A DNA stretch of 42,865 nucleotides from an uncultured Bacteroidota bacterium (lineage in GTDB: Bacteria > Bacteroidota > Bacteroidia > Bacteroidales > CG2-30-32-10): positions 1-42,865 of the forward strand of contig CAISZK010000385.1 of assembly GCA_903889915.1 (NCBI GenBank), in the 5' to 3' direction. The position numbers and the translations under genes were made by a program. This document shows, one piece after another, positions 227 through 10,768 of the stretch. Position 1 is the stretch's first letter. The number at the start of each line of letters is the position of its first letter. The notes under the pieces are model-generated. The model made no database searches, was not told where the DNA came from, and saw only the letters and a list, made by a program, of their open reading frames with translations.

Positions 227-356
227 AAGCACGACATCACATAAATAAAAATGATTTTATAGACTGACGTTTTTTGAAATACCTGTTCATAACTTTTTCC
301 CAAAAATAATTTGCATTTCAATTTTATTGTTTAATTTTGGACTGAATTTGTCCAAG

Positions 357-674
357 ATGAAAACTGAAAAAACTTTCGGCGACACAGTAAAAAAACTTCG
401 TGAAGAGCGAAATATGCCCTTGCGTGAAGTTGCCGAAGCATTGGAAATAGACACTTCCATGCTTGGCAAAATTGAAAAGAACAGCCGCAAGCCTTCAAAA
501 CAAATCATCGAAAAATTTGCAAAGTTTTTCAAAGTAAGCGTTAAAGATTTGACAATTGCTTTTGTTAGCGACACCGTCGCTTACCAGTTGATGAGCGAGA
601 AAAATATTTCAAATGAAGTATTGAAAGTCGCTGAGAAAAAAGTGAAATACCTGAAAAGAAAAAAAACCTCTTAA
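357..674 (+). CDS. XRE-family HTH transcriptional regulator (likely controller of adjacent methyltransferase)
   Basis: FGDTVKKLREERNMPLREVAEALEIDTSMLGKIEKNSRKPS is a classical XRE HTH. ATG at 357 is more likely than the track start at 327. It ends 2 nt before the methyltransferase ATG. Confidence 0.85.
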   Translation: MKTEKTFGDTVKKLREERNMPLREVAEALEIDTSMLGKIEKNSRKPSKQIIEKFAKFFKVSVKDLTIAFVSDTVAYQLMSEKNISNEVLKVAEKKVKYLKRKKTS

Positions 675-675
675 C

Positions 676-2286
676 ATGAAATTGATCACTGAAGCATCAG
701 CCGAAAAATTAAGAGGTGGTATTTACACCCCTGCGCCTATTGCGGAATTTATTTTGCGTTGGGGGATGAATGGCAGCGATGATTTGGATATACTTGAACC
801 AAGTTGTGGCGATGGTGTTTTTTTAGAACAATTGAAAGAACTTAACAGAAATTTTAATTCAATAACAGCCGTTGAATTTGATGCTGAAGAAGCGGAAAAA
901 GCCGATGCAATAGTTTTGGCAAATAAACAAATCATCAATGCCGATTTCCACACCTATTGCAACAATACTTTACAACGCTTTGATTTAATTGTAGGCAATC
1001 CCCCTTACATTCGTTACCAGTTTTTCAACAGGCAGCAGCAGGTTGAGGCAGGCGATATTTTTATTAAAGCCGGTCTCACTTATTCAAAACTCACCAATGC
1101 CTGGGTTTCCTTTGTTGTGGGTTCATCATTGCTGCTTAAAAACAAAGGCGGGAAAATCGGTTTTGTGTTGCCTGCCGAAATTTTGCATGTTTCGTTTGCA
1201 CAGCAGTTGCGCAGATTCATTGCACAATTTTACAATAAAATCAATATCATTTCTTTTGAAAAGCTTGTATTCCCCAACATTCAGCAGGAAGTTGTGTTGT
1301 TGTTGTGTGAGAAAAACGAAACAAAAGACCACAAGATTGAGCATATTGAATTGCGTGATGCTGCCCAACTGAAAACCCTTGACATTGCCCGACTGAAAAG
1401 CCCTCAAAAGAAAATTGATTTCAAATCCAATAAGTGGACTTTTTATTTCTTAGAGCAGGATGAAATTGATTTTTTAGAAAACATTGCCGCGAAAAGAAAA
1501 ATACCCACTCTTGGAAAATTTGCAAATGTAGAAGTTGGAATTACAACCGGCTCCAACGATTTTTTCACAGTGCCATTGACCACGGTTGAAGAATACAACT
1601 TGCAGGAATATGCCCGCCCCATGGTTGGCAGAAGCGTGCAGGTGACCTCTGCAATTTTTACTGAGAAAGACTGGGAGCAAAATAAATTTTCAAAGGCGAA
1701 AGCGCATCTTCTGGTGTTTCCAGGCAGCCAACATTCCGCGCTCAACAACGGGGCTAAGAAATATATCGCTTATGGCGAAAGTCTGGATATCCACAAAGGT
1801 TACAAGACAGGTATCCGTGATGATTGGTTTGTGGTTCCCTCATTAAAAATTTCAGATGCGCTTTTCATCAGGCGCAACAACCTTTATCCGCGGCTTATTA
1901 TTAACGAGGCAAAGGCATACACCACCGACACCATGCACCGTGTGTTTGTGCATCCCGGAACCGACATCCTGGCGCTTACTGCAAGTTATTACAACTCGCT
2001 TTCGCTTGCATTTACCGAAGTTAGCGGACGCAGCCACGGCGGTGGAGTGCTTGAACTGATGCCAAACGAAGCGGAAAGAGTTTTACTGCCATACCACATT
2101 GATAACGCTTCCTTACTTCCCCAAATTGACAAACTGATACGCAACAAAACCGACATAGAAGATGTGCTGAAAATTACCAACCAAATAATTTTAAAAGAGC
2201 ATTACGGTTTAACGCAAAAAGAAATAAACATGGCTCATAGTATTTGGAAAAAACTTTCGGGAAGAAGGTTGAATAGAGGGAAATAG
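676..2286 (+). CDS. N6-adenine DNA methyltransferase (Eco57I/TaqI-like class)
   Basis: LRGGIYTP..., SAM-binding motif LDILEPSCGDGVFLEQL, catalytic NPPYIRYQ; long C-terminal target-recognition region. Confidence 0.88.
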   Translation: MKLITEASAEKLRGGIYTPAPIAEFILRWGMNGSDDLDILEPSCGDGVFLEQLKELNRNFNSITAVEFDAEEAEKADAIVLANKQIINADFHTYCNNTLQRFDLIVGNPPYIRYQFFNRQQQVEAGDIFIKAGLTYSKLTNAWVSFVVGSSLLLKNKGGKIGFVLPAEILHVSFAQQLRRFIAQFYNKINIISFEKLVFPNIQQEVVLLLCEKNETKDHKIEHIELRDAAQLKTLDIARLKSPQKKIDFKSNKWTFYFLEQDEIDFLENIAAKRKIPTLGKFANVEVGITTGSNDFFTVPLTTVEEYNLQEYARPMVGRSVQVTSAIFTEKDWEQNKFSKAKAHLLVFPGSQHSALNNGAKKYIAYGESLDIHKGYKTGIRDDWFVVPSLKISDALFIRRNNLYPRLIINEAKAYTTDTMHRVFVHPGTDILALTASYYNSLSLAFTEVSGRSHGGGVLELMPNEAERVLLPYHIDNASLLPQIDKLIRNKTDIEDVLKITNQIILKEHYGLTQKEINMAHSIWKKLSGRRLNRGK

Positions 2287-2449: not shown

Positions 2450-3766
2450 ATGAATAATGCATATAGAGAAGAATTATTGAAATCAAATCTTTCAAAAGAA
2501 GAAATGAGCCTTGCTTTTAGAAAGGCTTTAAGTACTGAAAATTTAATTACTTCGGAAGATACTGCTATTATTTTTTATGATATGGATTTTTTGAAAGAAC
2601 GAATAACTGACTTGAAGAATTTGTTCCCAAAAACAACTTTACATGCTATTGCTACAAAGACGAACCCTTTGACTAAAATATTAGCAAGGATAAAAGAAAT
2701 GGAAGTAGGGATGGAAGTTGCAAGCTTACCCGAATTATATTTAGCGGAGAAGGCAGGATTCCCACCGGAAATGATTGTATTTGATTCTCCTTCTAAAACA
2801 AAAGAAGAAATTGAATACGCATTAAAACTTGGGGTATATCTTAATGCTGATTCTTTTACTGAACTTGATAGAATAGATGACATTTTAAAAACTTTAAAAT
2901 CAACAAGCACCATTGGAGTCAGAATTAATCCTCAGGTTGGTTCAGGAACTATAAAATCTACAAGTGTTGCTGATGCTATTTCAAAATTTGGAATTCCGAT
3001 AAACGACAATAGAGAAAAGATTGTAGAATATTACCTAAAATATGAATGGCTTAAGGGTATTCACGTTCATATTGGTTCGCAAGGTTGCCCCGTTCCTTTA
3101 ATCATTGAAGGAATTAAAAAGGTGTTGAATCTCGCTAACGAAATTAATGAAAATTTAAAACGAGAATCAAGGAAAAACTTGATTGAAGTTTTCGACATTG
3201 GAGGAGGCCTTCCTGTTTCTTATCATCTGGATAAAACGCCAATTTCAATGAAGGAATATCAAAGAAAGTTACAAGAGAATTTCAAAGAGTTTTTCAATGA
3301 TAAATTCAAATTAATTACAGAATTTGGACGGTATATTCATGCTAATACAGCTTGGGTAGCTTCAAGAGTCGAATATGTAAAAAGGGAAAATAATTACAAT
3401 ATCATTATGGCACATGTTGGAGCAGACCTTTTTCTGCGGAAATGTTACAATCCTAATGATTGGCATCATCAAATTACAGTTATTGATAAAGAAGGGAACC
3501 TAAAGAGAGGGAGGGACATCAATAAATATATTGTGGCAGGTCCGCTTTGTTTTTCTGGTGATGTAATTGCTATGGATTTAGAATTACCTGTTGTAGAGGA
3601 AGGAGACTATATATTAATACATGATGTTGGTGCATACACATTAAGCATGTGGTCTCGTTATAATAGCAGACAAATTCCCAAAGTGATTGGTTATTATAAG
3701 AATGGTGAATTTGAAATTTTAAAACAGAGAGAGAATAAGGCAAGTTTATTTGAATTTTGGTCATAG
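2450..3766 (+). CDS. Fold-type III PLP-dependent decarboxylase (ornithine/diaminopimelate/arginine decarboxylase family)
   Basis: HAIATKTNP (PLP lysine region), HVHIGSQG, FDIGGGLPVSY, EFGRYIHANTAW, AGPLCFSGDVIAMDLELP, HDVGAYTLSMWSRYNS. Confidence 0.8.
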   Translation: MNNAYREELLKSNLSKEEMSLAFRKALSTENLITSEDTAIIFYDMDFLKERITDLKNLFPKTTLHAIATKTNPLTKILARIKEMEVGMEVASLPELYLAEKAGFPPEMIVFDSPSKTKEEIEYALKLGVYLNADSFTELDRIDDILKTLKSTSTIGVRINPQVGSGTIKSTSVADAISKFGIPINDNREKIVEYYLKYEWLKGIHVHIGSQGCPVPLIIEGIKKVLNLANEINENLKRESRKNLIEVFDIGGGLPVSYHLDKTPISMKEYQRKLQENFKEFFNDKFKLITEFGRYIHANTAWVASRVEYVKRENNYNIIMAHVGADLFLRKCYNPNDWHHQITVIDKEGNLKRGRDINKYIVAGPLCFSGDVIAMDLELPVVEEGDYILIHDVGAYTLSMWSRYNSRQIPKVIGYYKNGEFEILKQRENKASLFEFWS

Positions 3767-3827: not shown

Positions 3828-4339
3828 TTAATGTGAAATCATCATTTCTGAAATCGCTTTACTGATACCATTTTGATTGATTCGTCTTATTGGTTTTGAT
3901 GAAACATTTTGTCCATCTTCTTTTGTAATTGCATTAGCTCCTGTAAAATATGCTACTTTATAAGAAAAGAAGGCGAACACATCACAAAAACGGCGTGTTC
4001 TGCAAGTTGATCAGGAATCTAATGCTTCCTGAGTGCTACAGCTCTTGTTATCTGGATGTATTTTGTTGAAGTTTCTTCTGTAAGATTGTTTTTTAAAAGT
4101 AAAAATTGTGCAATTTTTTCTAAATCAATAGTAGGCTGTTTTATTTGGATATGTTTTAATGAGTTTTCTAATCTCATCAAATGTTCTTTAAACAGAAATG
4201 GTTTTCCATTATAGCACATTGCAACTTCATATACTCCTTCACTAAATAAAAACCCCCTATCTAGTATGGATATTGAACAATCGGTACTTGTTTTTATTTC
4301 ATCATTCAGATATATGTAATTCTTCTGGTTCTTCATCAA
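3828..4339 (-). pseudogene. Remnant of a class IV (D-amino-acid / branched-chain-type) aminotransferase
   Basis: ORF 4019..4339 carries YIYLNDEIKTSTDCSISILDRGFLFSEGVYEVAMCYNGKPFLFKEHLMRLENSLKHI...YIQITRAVALRKH, then an in-frame TAG. The same frame continues IPDQLAEHAVFVMCSPSFLIK. A shifted frame then gives VAYFTGANAITKEDGQNVSSKPIRRINQNGISKAISEMMISH* (TAA at 3828-3830). Total span is too short for a complete enzyme. Confidence 0.7.
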
Positions 4340-5666
4340 TCATTATTTTACTTTTCTCCAAATATTCATTTACTACAGCTTCTGCTAACAGATCGAGTGT
4401 GTCAATTATAATTTTCCCTTTTCTGGTTTTATACTTTTGCTTGCTTAATAAAATAGATATTTCTGTCAAAGCAATTACAATTGTTTTAGATTTTACAATA
4501 TTATTCAAAAGATCCCTGAGTTTATTTATTCCAGCTCCTGTTGCACCTTCCTGCTTAACCTTAAATCCTAAATCTGATATTTTATGTATATCAGAATCAG
4601 ATAACTTTTCAATGTCAAAACCAGACAAATTGCTAAATCCACTTAACCCTCCTTTAATCTCTGTCACATGCTTAATACCGATAAAAGCAAATTGTTTGCT
4701 TTGATTAGACACTAAATATTTTTTTAAGATATTAGGAATAGAAATGAATTCTGCATTTTTAAGCTTACAAATTTCATTTATTGTTTTTGAATAATACTGC
4801 GTTGTGTTACATGCTACAGCAATTATTGTTGCTTCAGCATCACATAATGAATTTATTCCTCGATTGACAACGTCCCATGTGTCTTTTTCTCTAATATCAA
4901 GCTCCATTGAAAGCCCCATTTCTGGAATTGAATGCACAATTACTTCTGGAAAAGAAAGATCCCCTGCAAAATTATTTTTTAATTTTTCCCTTATTTTTTC
5001 ATTAATTTTATTCCATAGATAAATGCCGGAATCAGGACCATTTCCAGTCAGTATTCCTATTTTATATTTAATTGGCTTAATAAATTCCTTTACAATATCT
5101 GCTACTCTGCGATGACCAATGTTTTGAATTATATCTTTTGGATAAAATTCAACAGCCCATGTAAGATCACCTGCATTGGTCATCATTGTATAGGGAGCTA
5201 TTCTTTCTTCTTCAAGTGATTTATCAAAAACCTGTAATAATTCAGATTTAATAAAAAAAGGATCTAATGTAAATGGATTCACTTTTCCACGTGCCATTTT
5301 AAATAACCCAAATAATTCATTTTCTGAAATTTTTTCAATTTTATCATCAGGTTCAAAAAGTTTTTTTACTTTTTTCCAATCAATTATTTGATCCCCTTGA
5401 CAATGAAAAATAACATAGATTATTTTATTCTTTCTTTTGATTTTGGCAAAATAGCTTTTCAGTTCATCTCTAAGTGGAATTTTAGCATATCCTAATCTGT
5501 TTCTTTTTTGAGCAGCATCTCTACAACTAAATGCTTCAACGTTTCTGCTAAGATTGAACCAAATATTCTTTCTTTCAAAGAAATTAATGATCTCTTTAAC
5601 TGGCTTTGGTATGTCAGTTTCTCCTTCCATCAATAAATAGGAGAATTTATTTGCTTTTATGCTCAT
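4302..5666 (-). CDS. Fusion protein: N-terminal YbaK/prolyl-tRNA-deacylase-like domain + C-terminal Asp/Glu racemase-like domain
   Basis: N-term: VKEIINFFERKNIWF...AKIPLRDELKSYF...GKVNPFTL...TNAGDLTWAVEFYPKDI resembles the YbaK/EbsC domain. C-term: IGILTGNGPDSGIYLWNKI...AVACNTTQYY...IALTEISILL resembles Asp/Glu racemase (first catalytic Cys present, second replaced by Leu). Confidence 0.7.
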   Translation of the reverse strand: MSIKANKFSYLLMEGETDIPKPVKEIINFFERKNIWFNLSRNVEAFSCRDAAQKRNRLGYAKIPLRDELKSYFAKIKRKNKIIYVIFHCQGDQIIDWKKVKKLFEPDDKIEKISENELFGLFKMARGKVNPFTLDPFFIKSELLQVFDKSLEEERIAPYTMMTNAGDLTWAVEFYPKDIIQNIGHRRVADIVKEFIKPIKYKIGILTGNGPDSGIYLWNKINEKIREKLKNNFAGDLSFPEVIVHSIPEMGLSMELDIREKDTWDVVNRGINSLCDAEATIIAVACNTTQYYSKTINEICKLKNAEFISIPNILKKYLVSNQSKQFAFIGIKHVTEIKGGLSGFSNLSGFDIEKLSDSDIHKISDLGFKVKQEGATGAGINKLRDLLNNIVKSKTIVIALTEISILLSKQKYKTRKGKIIIDTLDLLAEAVVNEYLEKSKIMIDEEPEELHISE

Positions 5667-5685: not shown

Positions 5686-7173
5686 TTATTCTTTAATAAA
5701 TATTACCAACTCCATCCCATCCCATTCTATTTGTCCCTCATCATTTTCAAGAACAACAGTAAAACTTTCCCTACCATTGCTAATAACTGACCTTATATTC
5801 TTTGTTATATCATAAAATAAAACGGTTTTTTCCTTTATTTCAATTTGCCTAAAAGTACCAACAAAATTCGCCTTGTTCAGTTCGTCCTCAGAAGAAAGTC
5901 CCCGATAAATACTAATTAGTAAATGATCCAGACTCCCTGTTTCCACTGATCCGTTTTTTAATCTTAGTATTACCCTGTCTATTGTTTCTGGACTATTTCC
6001 AATGTTATTTATTGTAAATCCACCAATACGTTCCCTTTTGTGTTCACCACTAATTTTACCTTTATTTTCGACAAAACTTGGATAGATACTTAGACTCATT
6101 TCTCCTGCGATTGATTTTTGAGCGTCTAATATTGCATCTTCGTATTTTATATCTTCATCACCTAATATATGCATCAATTTTACTAAGGCGGTTTCTGGCA
6201 AAATATCAACTCCAGAAATTGCACCAGCATCTATTAATTTCGCTGATGTATCGTACATTCCCAACACTGTTTGCCCCCCTCCAGTCTGTGTTACGATAAA
6301 ACATATTATTCTTTTGTCGGCAGTTTTTTTGACAAGATCCATTATATTTTTTTGAGTCGGAATATTACCGGCTCCATATGCAAGAAAAACTACACCTTTT
6401 AAATCTGGAATTGAAAGAATATTTTCAAGCACTTTGCTATCCTGAATACCAGGAAAGAAAAACACTGAAACTACATGTGTGTTCATGCTTGATTTTAAAT
6501 AAAAATCACCTTTTGGTATTTCCCTTATTGTCTTTTTATGAACGACAATACTTTCACCGTATTCAGCCAATTTTGGATAATTCGGACTTTCATAAGCATA
6601 GAAACTTGAAGCATCTTTCTTATGTGTCCTATTTCCACGGAATAAATTGCCATTAAAAAAAATACACACTTCGGGTATTATCGGAATTTCAGTGTATTTT
6701 GGATTGGCAATATTTAGCGCGCCAATCATATTCATTAATGAATCATTCCATACATTAAATGTATGTGATACTTGTGCTCCAGTTAGGATAACTGGTTTTC
6801 CGAGATTTCGCAACATAAAACTCAAAGCAGAAGCAGTGTAAACCATTGTGTCTGTGCCATGTAAGAGCACAAAGCCAAAATATTTATTATATGATTCGGC
6901 AATTACTTTTGCAATTTCCTGCCATTCTTTAGGCCCAATATTACAACTATCTAAAGGTTGTGTTGTGTATGCATCAACATTAAAGCCGAGTGTTTTTTCA
7001 CTCAGTTGGGGTGTATTCTTTTTAAACTCTGACCATGAGATCACAACCTGTGGGCTGGATTTATCTTCCCTGTCCTTTGGCATTGAGCCAATTGTGCCAC
7101 CAGTATAAATTACTAAAACACCTTCTCCTTTATTGCTTTCATCGTAGCAATTAAATTTTAAATTATTTGACAT
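5686..7173 (-). CDS. L-asparaginase family protein with additional C-terminal beta-rich domain
   Basis: VLVIYTGGTIGSMPKD, FVLLHGTDTMVYTASALSFMLRNLGKPVILTGAQ, RGNRTHKKDASSFYAYESPNYPKLAEYG. C-terminal ~120 aa (IGGFTINNIGNSPETIDRVILRLKNGS...) lies outside the asparaginase fold. Confidence 0.85.
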   Translation of the reverse strand: MSNNLKFNCYDESNKGEGVLVIYTGGTIGSMPKDREDKSSPQVVISWSEFKKNTPQLSEKTLGFNVDAYTTQPLDSCNIGPKEWQEIAKVIAESYNKYFGFVLLHGTDTMVYTASALSFMLRNLGKPVILTGAQVSHTFNVWNDSLMNMIGALNIANPKYTEIPIIPEVCIFFNGNLFRGNRTHKKDASSFYAYESPNYPKLAEYGESIVVHKKTIREIPKGDFYLKSSMNTHVVSVFFFPGIQDSKVLENILSIPDLKGVVFLAYGAGNIPTQKNIMDLVKKTADKRIICFIVTQTGGGQTVLGMYDTSAKLIDAGAISGVDILPETALVKLMHILGDEDIKYEDAILDAQKSIAGEMSLSIYPSFVENKGKISGEHKRERIGGFTINNIGNSPETIDRVILRLKNGSVETGSLDHLLISIYRGLSSEDELNKANFVGTFRQIEIKEKTVLFYDITKNIRSVISNGRESFTVVLENDEGQIEWDGMELVIFIKE

Positions 7174-7185
7174 AATATTTTAATT

Positions 7186-9489
7186 TTAATTATCAATTTC
7201 TCCTATAAATGATTTGTGTAAAAAGTCTTTTATGCTTTTCATCTTTGAATCAGTTTTAATGTCTCCCTTTCTTATTGCTTCATCTACTTGAGGTAATACC
7301 CACATTAATTTCACAAGTGCTGCAGAAGCAGTCATGTTCTTAGCATGTATAGCTCCTATTTCCAAAGGAGCCAAAGCAGTAACATATTTATCCATGAATT
7401 TATGGTTTATTGGGTATTTTGATGTAATTAATACCGGAATATTCATATCTTTTACTAATGTTCCTATAACAGTCAAATAGTCATATTTTTTATCTGTCAA
7501 ATGGTTTAATGAGGTTGTAAGATTTCCTATCCCTAAACTCTGAATTACTACCGCTTTAATTTTGTTTTCTTTCTTTTCAAGCAACTGTAACAACCAATTA
7601 ACTTCAAATCCTGGATATTGTGATATTTGTAAAACATTAAACTCAAACTTATTTTTTAAATCAATGAAATTTGATTCTTTTTTTAAAATAATATCCTCTG
7701 AAAGTTCGATGTTCTCCGCAATCCAAGCAAGAGGTTTAATAGTAGAATGAAAACCGTCGAAATTATAATCATCTTTTTTTTCAGCTCTTACAGCACGATA
7801 AACATAATTACCAAAGCATATACAAACCTCAGGAATTTGATCCCCTTTCGCTGCTACCATAATTGCCCTAATCAGATTGATAGTCGCGTCACCATGTACC
7901 ATCTTTGATGTTGCCTGAGCTCCTACAAAAACCACAGGGAAGGGTACTCTTCCCAAAGCAAATGCAACTGCTGAAGCTGTAAATGAAAGTGAGTCTGTTC
8001 CGGATAGAATAACGAATCCTTTATAACCATCATTTCTTTTACTATATATTTCATCGGCGATTCTGATCCAATCTTCAGGATATATATTGCATCCGTCTTT
8101 CGCAGGTGTATAAGATGAAATTGTAATATTCGCCACATCGAGAATTTGAGGATATTTCGAAAGAATTTCTTCTGGGGTATCAGGTGCAACTACCATTTCT
8201 TTACCATCCAGGTTTCTTTCAAACATACCAATAGTACCTCCAAGATTAATAAGGCATATTTCAGGCAATAAATCTTTCGGTTCTCCGGTAACTCCTTTTT
8301 TTTGACTAGATGTCTTCAGATTTTTTTCAAATTTCGCATTGATGTTATTGATCCATGTTAAATCAAAAACCTTTTTATATAATTCATTTCTGAGGATAGG
8401 TTCACCAATACTATTATATTTGATCAGTCCGGCATAAAACAATACAATTAATGCATTCTTTCTAATTTCTGGATATATGCCGGTTGTAATTTCCCCATGT
8501 ATAATTTCCCGATAAATACTAACAACATTTCTATCGCCTAACTTACTTATATACTCAGTTGGCGTGTTTAAATGTCTTAAAATTGGGGAAAAATTATCTT
8601 TTAATGCGTCCTCCCCACTTTGCATTATTCTAATAATCTCGTCAAAATAATCATCTATTTGGTTTTCTCCGCTTATTTCTCCCTTTTGAATTTTATTATA
8701 AATATCAGCTGTAATACGCGGGTGTCCAGACGTATATATAAATACTTTCTCCGATAATTCTCTCTTTTTTTCAGCTTCAATACTTAGACCTTTTAATCCA
8801 ATTTCCCATTGTTCATAAACCTTCTTAGAAACAGTGAAGTCTGGAATTTGTAAATAACTCATTTTCATTTTCATTACAGTTCCAGGAGTTTCAGATATTA
8901 ACGAACTTACGGGTGAAACCGAAGTAAGCACGATGCTTAACCTAAGATTTGGAAATTCCGTTTCAAATAAAGAAAAGAAAATCTCATAAAATCTTTGATT
9001 AAAGTCTTTGTATTGTTTATTCCAATCTATCTCGTCAAAAAACAAAATTATTTTTTTATCCTTTTTAATCTTTTTAATAAACTGAATAATTGTCTTTTGC
9101 CATGATAGTTCTTTTACCTCATCACTTTCTAACCACTTTTCTATGTCAAGGTCATTATCTGTGCTTTGAATTAAACCAATTAGAGTCTGCACAAAATGCC
9201 AACTAGTAAGTTCATTTTCTTTTAAAGATACTTTGGGTTCTTGGTTCCAGAATGAGTGAAAATAACAATCATATTTTTCTTTTAATTTATCTCGCAGGAA
9301 CAAAATCAAGCTTGTTTTGCCTGTCTGACGGGGCGCAGTAATTGATATTATTGAGCACTTACTATCAATCTCCTCAAAAACTTTTTTTTCAATTTCTCGC
9401 TCAAAGTAAAAAGCATTACTACCCGGTATTATCGCTCCCCCTGTCTGATAGAATGATGTATTTGCCATAGTCAAATTATATGTTATCAA
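7186..9489 (-). CDS. AAA/STAND-like ATPase fused to a C-terminal asparaginase domain
   Basis: N-term: FYQTGGAIIPGSNAFYFEREIEKKVFEEI...ITAPRQTGKTSLILFL (Walker A)...KKIILFFDEIDW (Walker B). C-term: EICLINLGGTIGMF...FVILSGTDSLSFTASAVAFALGRVPFPVVFVGAQ...RAVRAEKKDDYNFDGFHS. Start may be the ATG at 9468. Confidence 0.85.
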   Translation of the reverse strand: MITYNLTMANTSFYQTGGAIIPGSNAFYFEREIEKKVFEEIDSKCSIISITAPRQTGKTSLILFLRDKLKEKYDCYFHSFWNQEPKVSLKENELTSWHFVQTLIGLIQSTDNDLDIEKWLESDEVKELSWQKTIIQFIKKIKKDKKIILFFDEIDWNKQYKDFNQRFYEIFFSLFETEFPNLRLSIVLTSVSPVSSLISETPGTVMKMKMSYLQIPDFTVSKKVYEQWEIGLKGLSIEAEKKRELSEKVFIYTSGHPRITADIYNKIQKGEISGENQIDDYFDEIIRIMQSGEDALKDNFSPILRHLNTPTEYISKLGDRNVVSIYREIIHGEITTGIYPEIRKNALIVLFYAGLIKYNSIGEPILRNELYKKVFDLTWINNINAKFEKNLKTSSQKKGVTGEPKDLLPEICLINLGGTIGMFERNLDGKEMVVAPDTPEEILSKYPQILDVANITISSYTPAKDGCNIYPEDWIRIADEIYSKRNDGYKGFVILSGTDSLSFTASAVAFALGRVPFPVVFVGAQATSKMVHGDATINLIRAIMVAAKGDQIPEVCICFGNYVYRAVRAEKKDDYNFDGFHSTIKPLAWIAENIELSEDIILKKESNFIDLKNKFEFNVLQISQYPGFEVNWLLQLLEKKENKIKAVVIQSLGIGNLTTSLNHLTDKKYDYLTVIGTLVKDMNIPVLITSKYPINHKFMDKYVTALAPLEIGAIHAKNMTASAALVKLMWVLPQVDEAIRKGDIKTDSKMKSIKDFLHKSFIGEIDN

Positions 9490-10768
9490 TTATGTTTACA
9501 TAGGTCGAATCTAATTTTTTCCCATTAAGTCCTAATGTTTGCAATTGTTCTGAACCACCTTTACCAATGATTCTTTCAGGATCAGATTTATCCAACGTGT
9601 CTTTATTTACTCCATTACTAATAAAATACTCTTTCAGTATCTCTTTATATTTTGTTAATTTTTCATCGTATTCACTTTGATCAACATAACCTCCAAGGTG
9701 ATAACGATAATAATGCGCTATAAAACATGTTTCCGGATACTTCATTTTTACATCACTATCGCTCAAACCATACAGTTCATTTAGCATTATTAAATCGTCA
9801 TTGTTGAATTCTGTGCATCTTATGAGTCTTCCTTCGTTTTTAATTAATGAAGAACAAGGAATGTTATCTGGTAAATAAGGAATAGAAAAGGAAAATAAGA
9901 TTTTTCTATCATTACTAGGATGACCACAAATCCGAGTACATACTTTTGTTATCAAATCATTTATAATCGAAAAACTAATAATACCACGCAAAAGAAGTTT
10001 CTCTATAGAATCTATGATTACCATAGTATTATGAGTTTGTTTTTTTAAACCGTAATTAGCTTCAAGCTTGTTTAGATTAAATAAATCTATCCAGTTAGTT
10101 TCTGTGAGGGTTTCTTTAAATTGAATACCGGTAAACTTTGTCCATTCTTCAGTTATATATTTAATTATTGTTAAAAAGTTACTTGAAAGATTAGCCTTGC
10201 CTTTTATCATGTCCTCTAATATTTCTTCAAGATCAATATAAAGACAACGATAATCATTACGCTTATTCAGTTCTTTTTGAATATCTTTTAGAATTGAAGA
10301 TTTTCCTGATGAAATTCTACCTTCAACGAAAAGCAACAAGCGATTATCTTTACCCGAAAAACTTTTCGATACATCAAAATAATCCATCTCGGATTTTCGA
10401 ATTATATAATTGGTTGCTAAAAGATCCATTGGACCCACAGGTGCATTATACTTCGTATAAGCATTTTTAATTCTTTCAAGATTCTTTTTTGCAGCTTCAT
10501 ACTGTCCTTGGTCTTGCAGTTTGATTACTTTGGAATTAAATTTTGTCTGCAAGTAATTATAAAATTTCACTCGTAGGGTCGTTTCAAGATGTTCAGTTTC
10601 CTTGGTAGTCAAGTTAATTTCACCTTTTAAAAACTTCGACATCCTGCTTGTGTCAATTTTGATCTCATTTTTTAGTATATCTACGACCTGAGTATTTGCC
10701 ACGTCAAGCTGAGTCATTAATACCCGATAGGCAGTAATTATTTTTTCTTCATTTAAATCAGTTGTCAT
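9476..10768 (-). CDS. P-loop NTPase with N-terminal HTH-like region
   Basis: Walker A VEGRISSGKSSIL, Walker B HNTMVIIDSIEKL; N-terminal ITAYRVLMTQLDVANTQVVDILKNEIKIDTSRMSKFLKGEINLTTKETEHLE looks HTH-like. Start codon sits just downstream of a canonical promoter. Confidence 0.65.
   Translation of the reverse strand: MTTDLNEEKIITAYRVLMTQLDVANTQVVDILKNEIKIDTSRMSKFLKGEINLTTKETEHLETTLRVKFYNYLQTKFNSKVIKLQDQGQYEAAKKNLERIKNAYTKYNAPVGPMDLLATNYIIRKSEMDYFDVSKSFSGKDNRLLLFVEGRISSGKSSILKDIQKELNKRNDYRCLYIDLEEILEDMIKGKANLSSNFLTIIKYITEEWTKFTGIQFKETLTETNWIDLFNLNKLEANYGLKKQTHNTMVIIDSIEKLLLRGIISFSIINDLITKVCTRICGHPSNDRKILFSFSIPYLPDNIPCSSLIKNEGRLIRCTEFNNDDLIMLNELYGLSDSDVKMKYPETCFIAHYYRYHLGGYVDQSEYDEKLTKYKEILKEYFISNGVNKDTLDKSDPERIIGKGGSEQLQTLGLNGKKLDSTYVNIIDNI

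What the first reader, a model, noticed from the sequence alone, without database searches (positions are those of the whole stretch)
4302..5666. YbaK-like tRNA-deacylase domain fused to an Asp/Glu racemase-like domain missing the second catalytic Cys
Seen: the N-terminal part has YbaK-family landmarks (IPLRDELKSYF with a candidate catalytic Lys, GKVNPFTL, TNAGDLTWAVEF). The C-terminal part has racemase landmarks: GNGPDSG instead of GGMGPxAT, VACNTTQ with Cys present, and IALTE where the family normally has GCTE. Known: Asp/Glu racemases use a two-Cys mechanism, and YbaK/ProX deacylate mischarged tRNA. Inference: the C-terminal domain is unlikely to be a normal two-base racemase. It may be a one-way epimerase, a lyase/isomerase or a binding domain coupled to aminoacyl-tRNA editing.
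Basis: partly seen in the sequence, partly recalled or inferred. Interest (0 to 1): 0.72.

Follow-up and report, generated by a model that had tools for sequence, protein, structure and literature searches.

The report
tRNA-editing domain fused to broken racemase
A bacterial protein joins a domain that normally strips wrong amino acids off tRNA to a racemase-shaped domain that has lost one of its two catalytic cysteines. It sits in an operon with two asparagine-degrading enzymes, so it is probably a repurposed part of asparagine metabolism rather than an ordinary racemase.

Summary
Window 4302-5666 (minus strand) is one intact 454-codon ORF: a tRNA_edit (YbaK/ProX) domain passing Pfam's cut-off, then an Asp/Glu-racemase-fold domain (residues ~200-440 modelled at high confidence). 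Using a motif shared with an Ensifer racemase I found a racemase subfamily in GTDB. In 43 full-length relatives both catalytic Cys are invariant (43/43 each). The window protein keeps Cys286 but has Leu400 in place of the second, and has no Cys after residue 300, so nothing substitutes. None of the motif-matched relatives carries a YbaK extension. In 23 of 43, an asparaginase gene lies directly downstream; some operons add aspartase or an asparagine permease. The subfamily is therefore probably part of (D-)Asn use. The window gene lies in a tight operon with two asparaginases, one fused to an AAA_35 ATPase, an HTH-ATPase, and a broken D-amino-acid transaminase. It is the most divergent member (branch ~2 subs/site), with no fusion homologue found. 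Known natural single-Cys racemases (EcL-DER, RacX, PH1733) lost the other Cys, so the "one-way epimerase" analogy does not transfer directly. Most likely: a repurposed ligand-binding pseudo-racemase attached to an aminoacyl-ester hydrolase. Function is untested; decay is not excluded.

The parts
4302..5666 (-). YbaK-like / racemase-like fusion protein, 454 aa
   Evidence: Single intact ORF; only copy in the genome
5073..5666 (-). N-terminal part with tRNA_edit (YbaK/ProX) domain; residues 48-154 hit Pfam; candidate catalytic Lys70
   Evidence: Pfam PF04073 E=5.5e-9 above cut-off; K70 aligned to YbaK/ProX Lys; shuffle control
4347..5066 (-). Racemase-fold domain (about residues 201-440): Cys286 kept, second Cys replaced by Leu400, Lys371/Thr401/Glu402/Asp422 kept
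   Evidence: Family alignment; AF2 pLDDT mostly >90; Foldseek to Asp racemases TMt 0.73-0.80
5686..7173 (-). Type I asparaginase-like protein with C-terminal extension, 19 bases upstream of the fusion gene
   Evidence: PF00710 2e-50, TIGR00519 2.3e-70 just under cut-off; Ilyobacter homologue shares the extension
7186..9489 (-). AAA_35-type ATPase fused to an asparaginase domain
   Evidence: AAA_35 8.2e-8 and Asparaginase 7.7e-43; N-terminal half absent from 296 other genomes of the phylum and from plasmids
9476..10768 (-). HTH plus P-loop ATPase-like protein, first gene of the operon, overlaps the next by 14 bases
   Evidence: Weak ATPase_2 3.6e-5, below cut-off; HTH read from sequence; absent from 296 other genomes of the phylum
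3829..4339 (-). Broken D-amino-acid transaminase remnant: N-terminal ~106 aa, then stops, then a C-terminal piece in another frame, middle missing
   Evidence: NF005209 4.7e-23 for the N-terminal piece; three-frame translation

Best explanation
The gene encodes an intact, fast-evolving two-domain protein. Shown: the C-terminal domain has the Asp/Glu-racemase fold and derives from a racemase subfamily whose genes usually sit in an operon with an asparaginase. It keeps the first catalytic Cys and the conserved pocket residues, but the second acid/base Cys is replaced by Leu and its loop is remodelled. Shown by sequence only: the N-terminal domain is a YbaK/ProX-type tRNA_edit domain with the catalytic Lys position kept. 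Inferred: the C-terminal domain no longer racemises and serves mainly to bind an asparagine/aspartate-type ligand, while the YbaK domain hydrolyses an aminoacyl ester, in a module with two asparaginases and two ATPases.
For: Fold and pocket: residues 200-440 at pLDDT mostly >90; Foldseek to 3s81, 5ell, 1jfl and others. K371 aligns with PhAspR Lys164 and L400 with Cys194 by the profile alignment. Second Cys is 43/43 in relatives, Leu here, and residues 301-454 contain no Cys. Outside the search motif, 14 of 19 family-invariant positions are kept against 65 of 217 positions overall, so it has evolved under constraint; 3 of the 5 changed invariants (398, 400, 403) cluster at the second-Cys loop. 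YbaK: Pfam above cut-off, K70 aligned, shuffles never reach the score. Asparagine context: asparaginase immediately upstream and a second one fused to an ATPase; 23 of 43 relatives have an asparaginase gene directly 3'; aspartase also in the Ensifer and L046 operons; a permease closest to L-asparagine permease upstream in L006. EcL-DER C197S is inactive.
Against: No homologue of the fusion was found, so joint function cannot be tested by conservation. The YbaK half is divergent and structure prediction did not resolve it. The neighbouring transaminase is a pseudogene, so the locus is partly decaying. A remaining Cys286 could still do one-sided proton chemistry. Ligand identity is inferred from gene neighbours only.
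Confidence: 0.45

Rival explanations
1. The C-terminal domain is a working single-Cys enzyme: Cys286 protonates or deprotonates one face of its substrate, giving one-way epimerisation, decarboxylation, elimination or isomerisation rather than reversible racemisation.
For: Cys286, Lys371, Thr401, Glu402 and Asp422 are all kept. Natural single-Cys relatives can be active: EcL-DER acts only on L-Asp/L-Glu and RacX is active with Ala79/Cys193 (PMC12838360). From my own knowledge: arylmalonate decarboxylase works with one Cys.
Against: Those enzymes keep the second Cys and lose the first; here it is the reverse. C197S in EcL-DER is inactive and C193S in RacX markedly reduced. Leu is a non-functional replacement.
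Confidence: 0.2
2. The gene is a relic: a former fusion enzyme of a D-amino-acid cluster that has lost function and is decaying with its neighbours.
For: The adjacent D-amino-acid transaminase is broken by stops and a missing middle. Branch length 1.97 substitutions/site, longest in the tree. Low G+C of 0.294 against 0.376 in the rest of the window. No homologue in the related genomes sampled.
Against: The 454-codon ORF is open, gene gaps in the operon are 12-19 bases, and family-invariant residues are kept far above background, 14/19 against 65/217.
Confidence: 0.2
3. The operon is an NTPase-controlled conflict (defence) module in which asparaginases and the YbaK-pseudoracemase act as effector and sensor that shut down translation by draining asparagine or charged tRNA.
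For: An AAA_35-type ATPase fused to asparaginase, preceded by an HTH-ATPase; extreme rarity; Type II methyltransferase genes nearby at the contig end.
Against: No convincing defence-family match for any of the operon genes (none for the fusion, the 5686-7173 asparaginase or the transaminase remnant; only weak, partial hits for the two ATPases). No relative operons found to show a pattern. Asparaginase-racemase pairing in relatives looks catabolic.
Confidence: 0.12

Closest known systems
Asparaginase-linked racemase subfamily (motif G-x-G-P-[DE]-A-G-[IV]-D-L-W-x-K; e.g. Ensifer adhaerens WP_275027359.1)
   Same: Closest sequence relatives of the C-terminal domain (22-33% identity), same fold signature, same association with asparaginase genes
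   Different: All members found are stand-alone and have both Cys (43/43); the window protein has a YbaK extension and Leu at the second Cys
Aspartate racemases with solved structure (PhAspR 1jfl, Salmonella 3s81, McyF 5wxx)
   Same: Fold (Foldseek TMt 0.73-0.80); first Cys and Lys164 equivalent kept
   Different: Second Cys missing; PhAspR Arg48 position is Leu in the window and in most of the subfamily (35/43)
EcL-DER/YgeA, RacX of Halocola, PH1733
   Same: Natural members of the superfamily with only one of the two Cys
   Different: They lack the first Cys and keep the second; the window protein is the mirror case
CuyB cysteate racemase (NF052483)
   Same: Best NCBIfam match of the C-terminal domain and matched by all 43 aligned sequences
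   Different: 61.6 bits against a cut-off of 190; not a CuyB
YbaK / ProX (ProXp-ala, PF04073)
   Same: Pfam match above cut-off; catalytic Lys position kept; G-x-V-x-P-F motif
   Different: Very divergent (about 19-25% to the genome's own ProX-like protein, which also exists); fused to a racemase domain

Membership tests
Asp/Glu/hydantoin racemase superfamily (PF01177) | Racemase two-domain fold | tested here: met
   AF2 residues 200-440 mostly pLDDT >90; Foldseek E down to 5.5e-12 to Asp racemases
Asp/Glu/hydantoin racemase superfamily (PF01177) | Score above Pfam curated cut-off | tested here: not met
   19.4 bits against 31
Two-Cys Asp/Glu racemase | First catalytic Cys (CNT motif) | tested here: met
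   Cys286, invariant in 43/43 relatives
Two-Cys Asp/Glu racemase | Second catalytic Cys (CTE motif) | tested here: not met
   Leu400; no Cys in residues 301-454
Two-Cys Asp/Glu racemase | Racemisation of Asp or Glu | not testable with these tools
   Needs enzyme assay
CuyB cysteate racemase | NCBIfam equivalog cut-off of 190 bits | tested here: not met
   61.6 bits
Asparaginase-linked racemase subfamily | Adjacent co-directional asparaginase gene | tested here: met
   Asparaginase 19 bases upstream; 23 of 43 relatives have it directly downstream
YbaK/ProX tRNA_edit (PF04073) | Score above Pfam curated cut-off | tested here: met
   36.6 bits against 25.5
YbaK/ProX tRNA_edit (PF04073) | Catalytic Lys in the K-[NT]-L-F region | tested here: met
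   Lys70 aligned by HMM and MAFFT
YbaK/ProX tRNA_edit (PF04073) | YbaK fold | tested here: inconclusive
   Low pLDDT with and without alignment; no homologous rows available
YbaK/ProX tRNA_edit (PF04073) | Deacylation of mischarged tRNA | not testable with these tools
   Needs assay

The most novel reading that the evidence does not exclude
The operon is a previously undescribed NTPase-controlled module that senses or attacks asparagine supply and aminoacyl-tRNA. In it a pseudo-racemase domain reads an Asn/Asp ligand and gates a YbaK-type aminoacyl-tRNA hydrolase, working with an ATPase-asparaginase fusion.
Probability: 0.12. Interest if true: 0.75.

Novelty: new variant of a known kind. Interest (0 to 1): 0.45.

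Why it matters
It is a natural case of an Asp/Glu-racemase fold that keeps the first and loses the second catalytic Cys, the mirror of the characterised single-Cys enzymes, so it could test what each Cys alone can do. It also links racemase and tRNA-editing folds in one chain. As a by-product, the search defines a racemase subfamily genetically tied to asparaginases, a candidate asparagine racemase group that ordinary enzyme assays could settle.

Tried and rejected
No homologue of the fusion or of the two ATPase genes turned up in the genomes of the same phylum sampled, plasmids or, for the fusion, phages and viral contigs. A first genome-contig scan with a two-row alignment found nothing. Filing the C-terminal domain as CuyB was rejected by score. 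Filing the asparaginases as GatD was rejected because type I asparaginase models score higher, although the best PDB hit of the ATPase fusion is GatD. Arcobacter L024, whose tblastn match began in the YbaK half, proved to be a stand-alone racemase. Long upstream reading frames in L008, L014 and L015 look like high-G+C read-through, not YbaK, and no YbaK gene lies in any of the 50 loci. Attempts to collect YbaK rows from viral contigs for a better fold failed; single-sequence folding of the N-terminal half was uninformative. Papers on a racemase-asparaginase-YbaK link: none found.

Full report
What is there. Window 4302-5666, minus strand, is one open reading frame of 454 codons, the only copy in the genome. 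It is the fourth gene of a tight minus-strand operon: an HTH/ATPase-like protein (9476-10768), an AAA_35 ATPase fused to an asparaginase (7186-9489), a type I asparaginase-like protein with a C-terminal extension (5686-7173), the fusion, and a broken D-amino-acid transaminase (about 4339-3829). The first two genes overlap by 14 bases; the next gaps are 12 and 19 bases.

N-terminal half. Pfam tRNA_edit matches residues 48-154 at E=5.5e-9, above its curated cut-off. It aligns Lys70 with the invariant catalytic Lys of the family, and GKVNPFTL with the G-[GS]-[IV]-S-P motif. The genome also has a conventional ProX-like protein. The fold could not be confirmed by structure prediction because no homologous rows could be supplied.

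C-terminal half. NCBIfam's best match is CuyB, far below cut-off. The nearest annotated relative is an Ensifer plasmid racemase next to an asparaginase and an aspartate ammonia-lyase. A motif common to both, scanned over GTDB genomes, gave 50 loci, nearly all real relatives by tblastn. An alignment of 43 full-length relatives shows the first Cys and the second Cys each in 43/43; the window protein has Cys286 and Leu400. It keeps Lys371, Thr401, Glu402, Asp422, Ser246, Met254 and Glu353. Motif positions are conserved by construction of the search and are not counted. Outside the motif 14 of 19 invariant positions are kept, against 65 of 217 positions overall (binomial p about 1e-4). The model of this half is confident and matches Asp racemases. 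The only cysteines of the protein are 48, 89, 275, 286 and 300, so none can replace the second catalytic Cys.

Evolution. In a tree of the subfamily the window protein has a branch of 1.97 substitutions per site, the longest, weakly placed beside Aquimarina and Pseudoalteromonas members. None of the relatives has the YbaK extension. No relative of the fusion was found in the genomes of its phylum, class, order or family that were sampled.

What the subfamily does. In 23 of 43 loci an asparaginase gene lies directly downstream on the same strand, with gaps from -109 (one long gene call) to +162 bases. Aspartate ammonia-lyase follows in Ensifer and L046; a permease best matching L-asparagine permease precedes it in L006; sodium:alanine symporters are also frequent neighbours. 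The position of PhAspR Arg48 is Leu in 35 of 43 members and in the window protein (alignment). From gene order I infer that the subfamily serves asparagine use, possibly racemising Asn (D-Asn to L-Asn to Asp to fumarate). This is untested and no paper on an asparagine racemase of this kind was found.

Mechanism. Published single-Cys members lost the first Cys: EcL-DER (Thr83/Cys197), RacX (Ala79/Cys193), PH1733 (Ala82). EcL-DER C197S is inactive and RacX C193S is markedly reduced (PMC12838360). The window protein lost the second. The simplest reading is that it no longer racemises and that the retained pocket binds an Asn/Asp-type ligand, while the YbaK domain acts on an aminoacyl ester. The last two steps are inference. 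One-sided catalysis by Cys286 and decay of the gene remain open.

Verdict. It is a rare, divergent variant built from two known folds, in an asparagine-centred operon, without functional proof.

Noticed in passing
L006, L018, L033, L045, L046, L002 and others: A racemase subfamily (GSGPEAGIDLW motif, both Cys present) sits directly upstream of asparaginase genes in 23 of 43 loci, sometimes with aspartase or an asparagine-permease-like gene: a candidate asparagine racemase group.
   Followed up: partly
window 7186-9489 (-): AAA_35-type ATPase fused to an asparaginase domain; asparaginase half's best PDB match is GatD 2d6f; no homologue of the ATPase half found in 296 other genomes of the phylum or in plasmids.
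   Followed up: partly
window 3829-4339 (-): Degraded D-amino-acid transaminase: N-terminal piece ends in a stop, a C-terminal piece is in another frame, the middle is missing.
   Followed up: yes
window 5686-7173 (-); L003 9001-10404: Asparaginase with a ~135-aa C-terminal extension shared with an unannotated Ilyobacter plasmid gene (37.7% over 96%).
   Followed up: partly
window 327-2286 (+): HTH control-like protein followed by an Eco57I-type methyltransferase (PADLOC MTase_II 1.4e-198) near the contig end; a restriction partner may lie beyond it.
   Followed up: no
window 2450-3766 (+): LysA-like fold-III PLP decarboxylase, convergent with the operon, scoring below the lysA cut-off (270 against 298 bits).
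   Followed up: no
L007 and L012: In two Bacteroidota loci the subfamily racemase follows an EamA exporter and a class-V-aminotransferase-like gene instead of an asparaginase, and has CNV in place of CNT at the first Cys.
   Followed up: no
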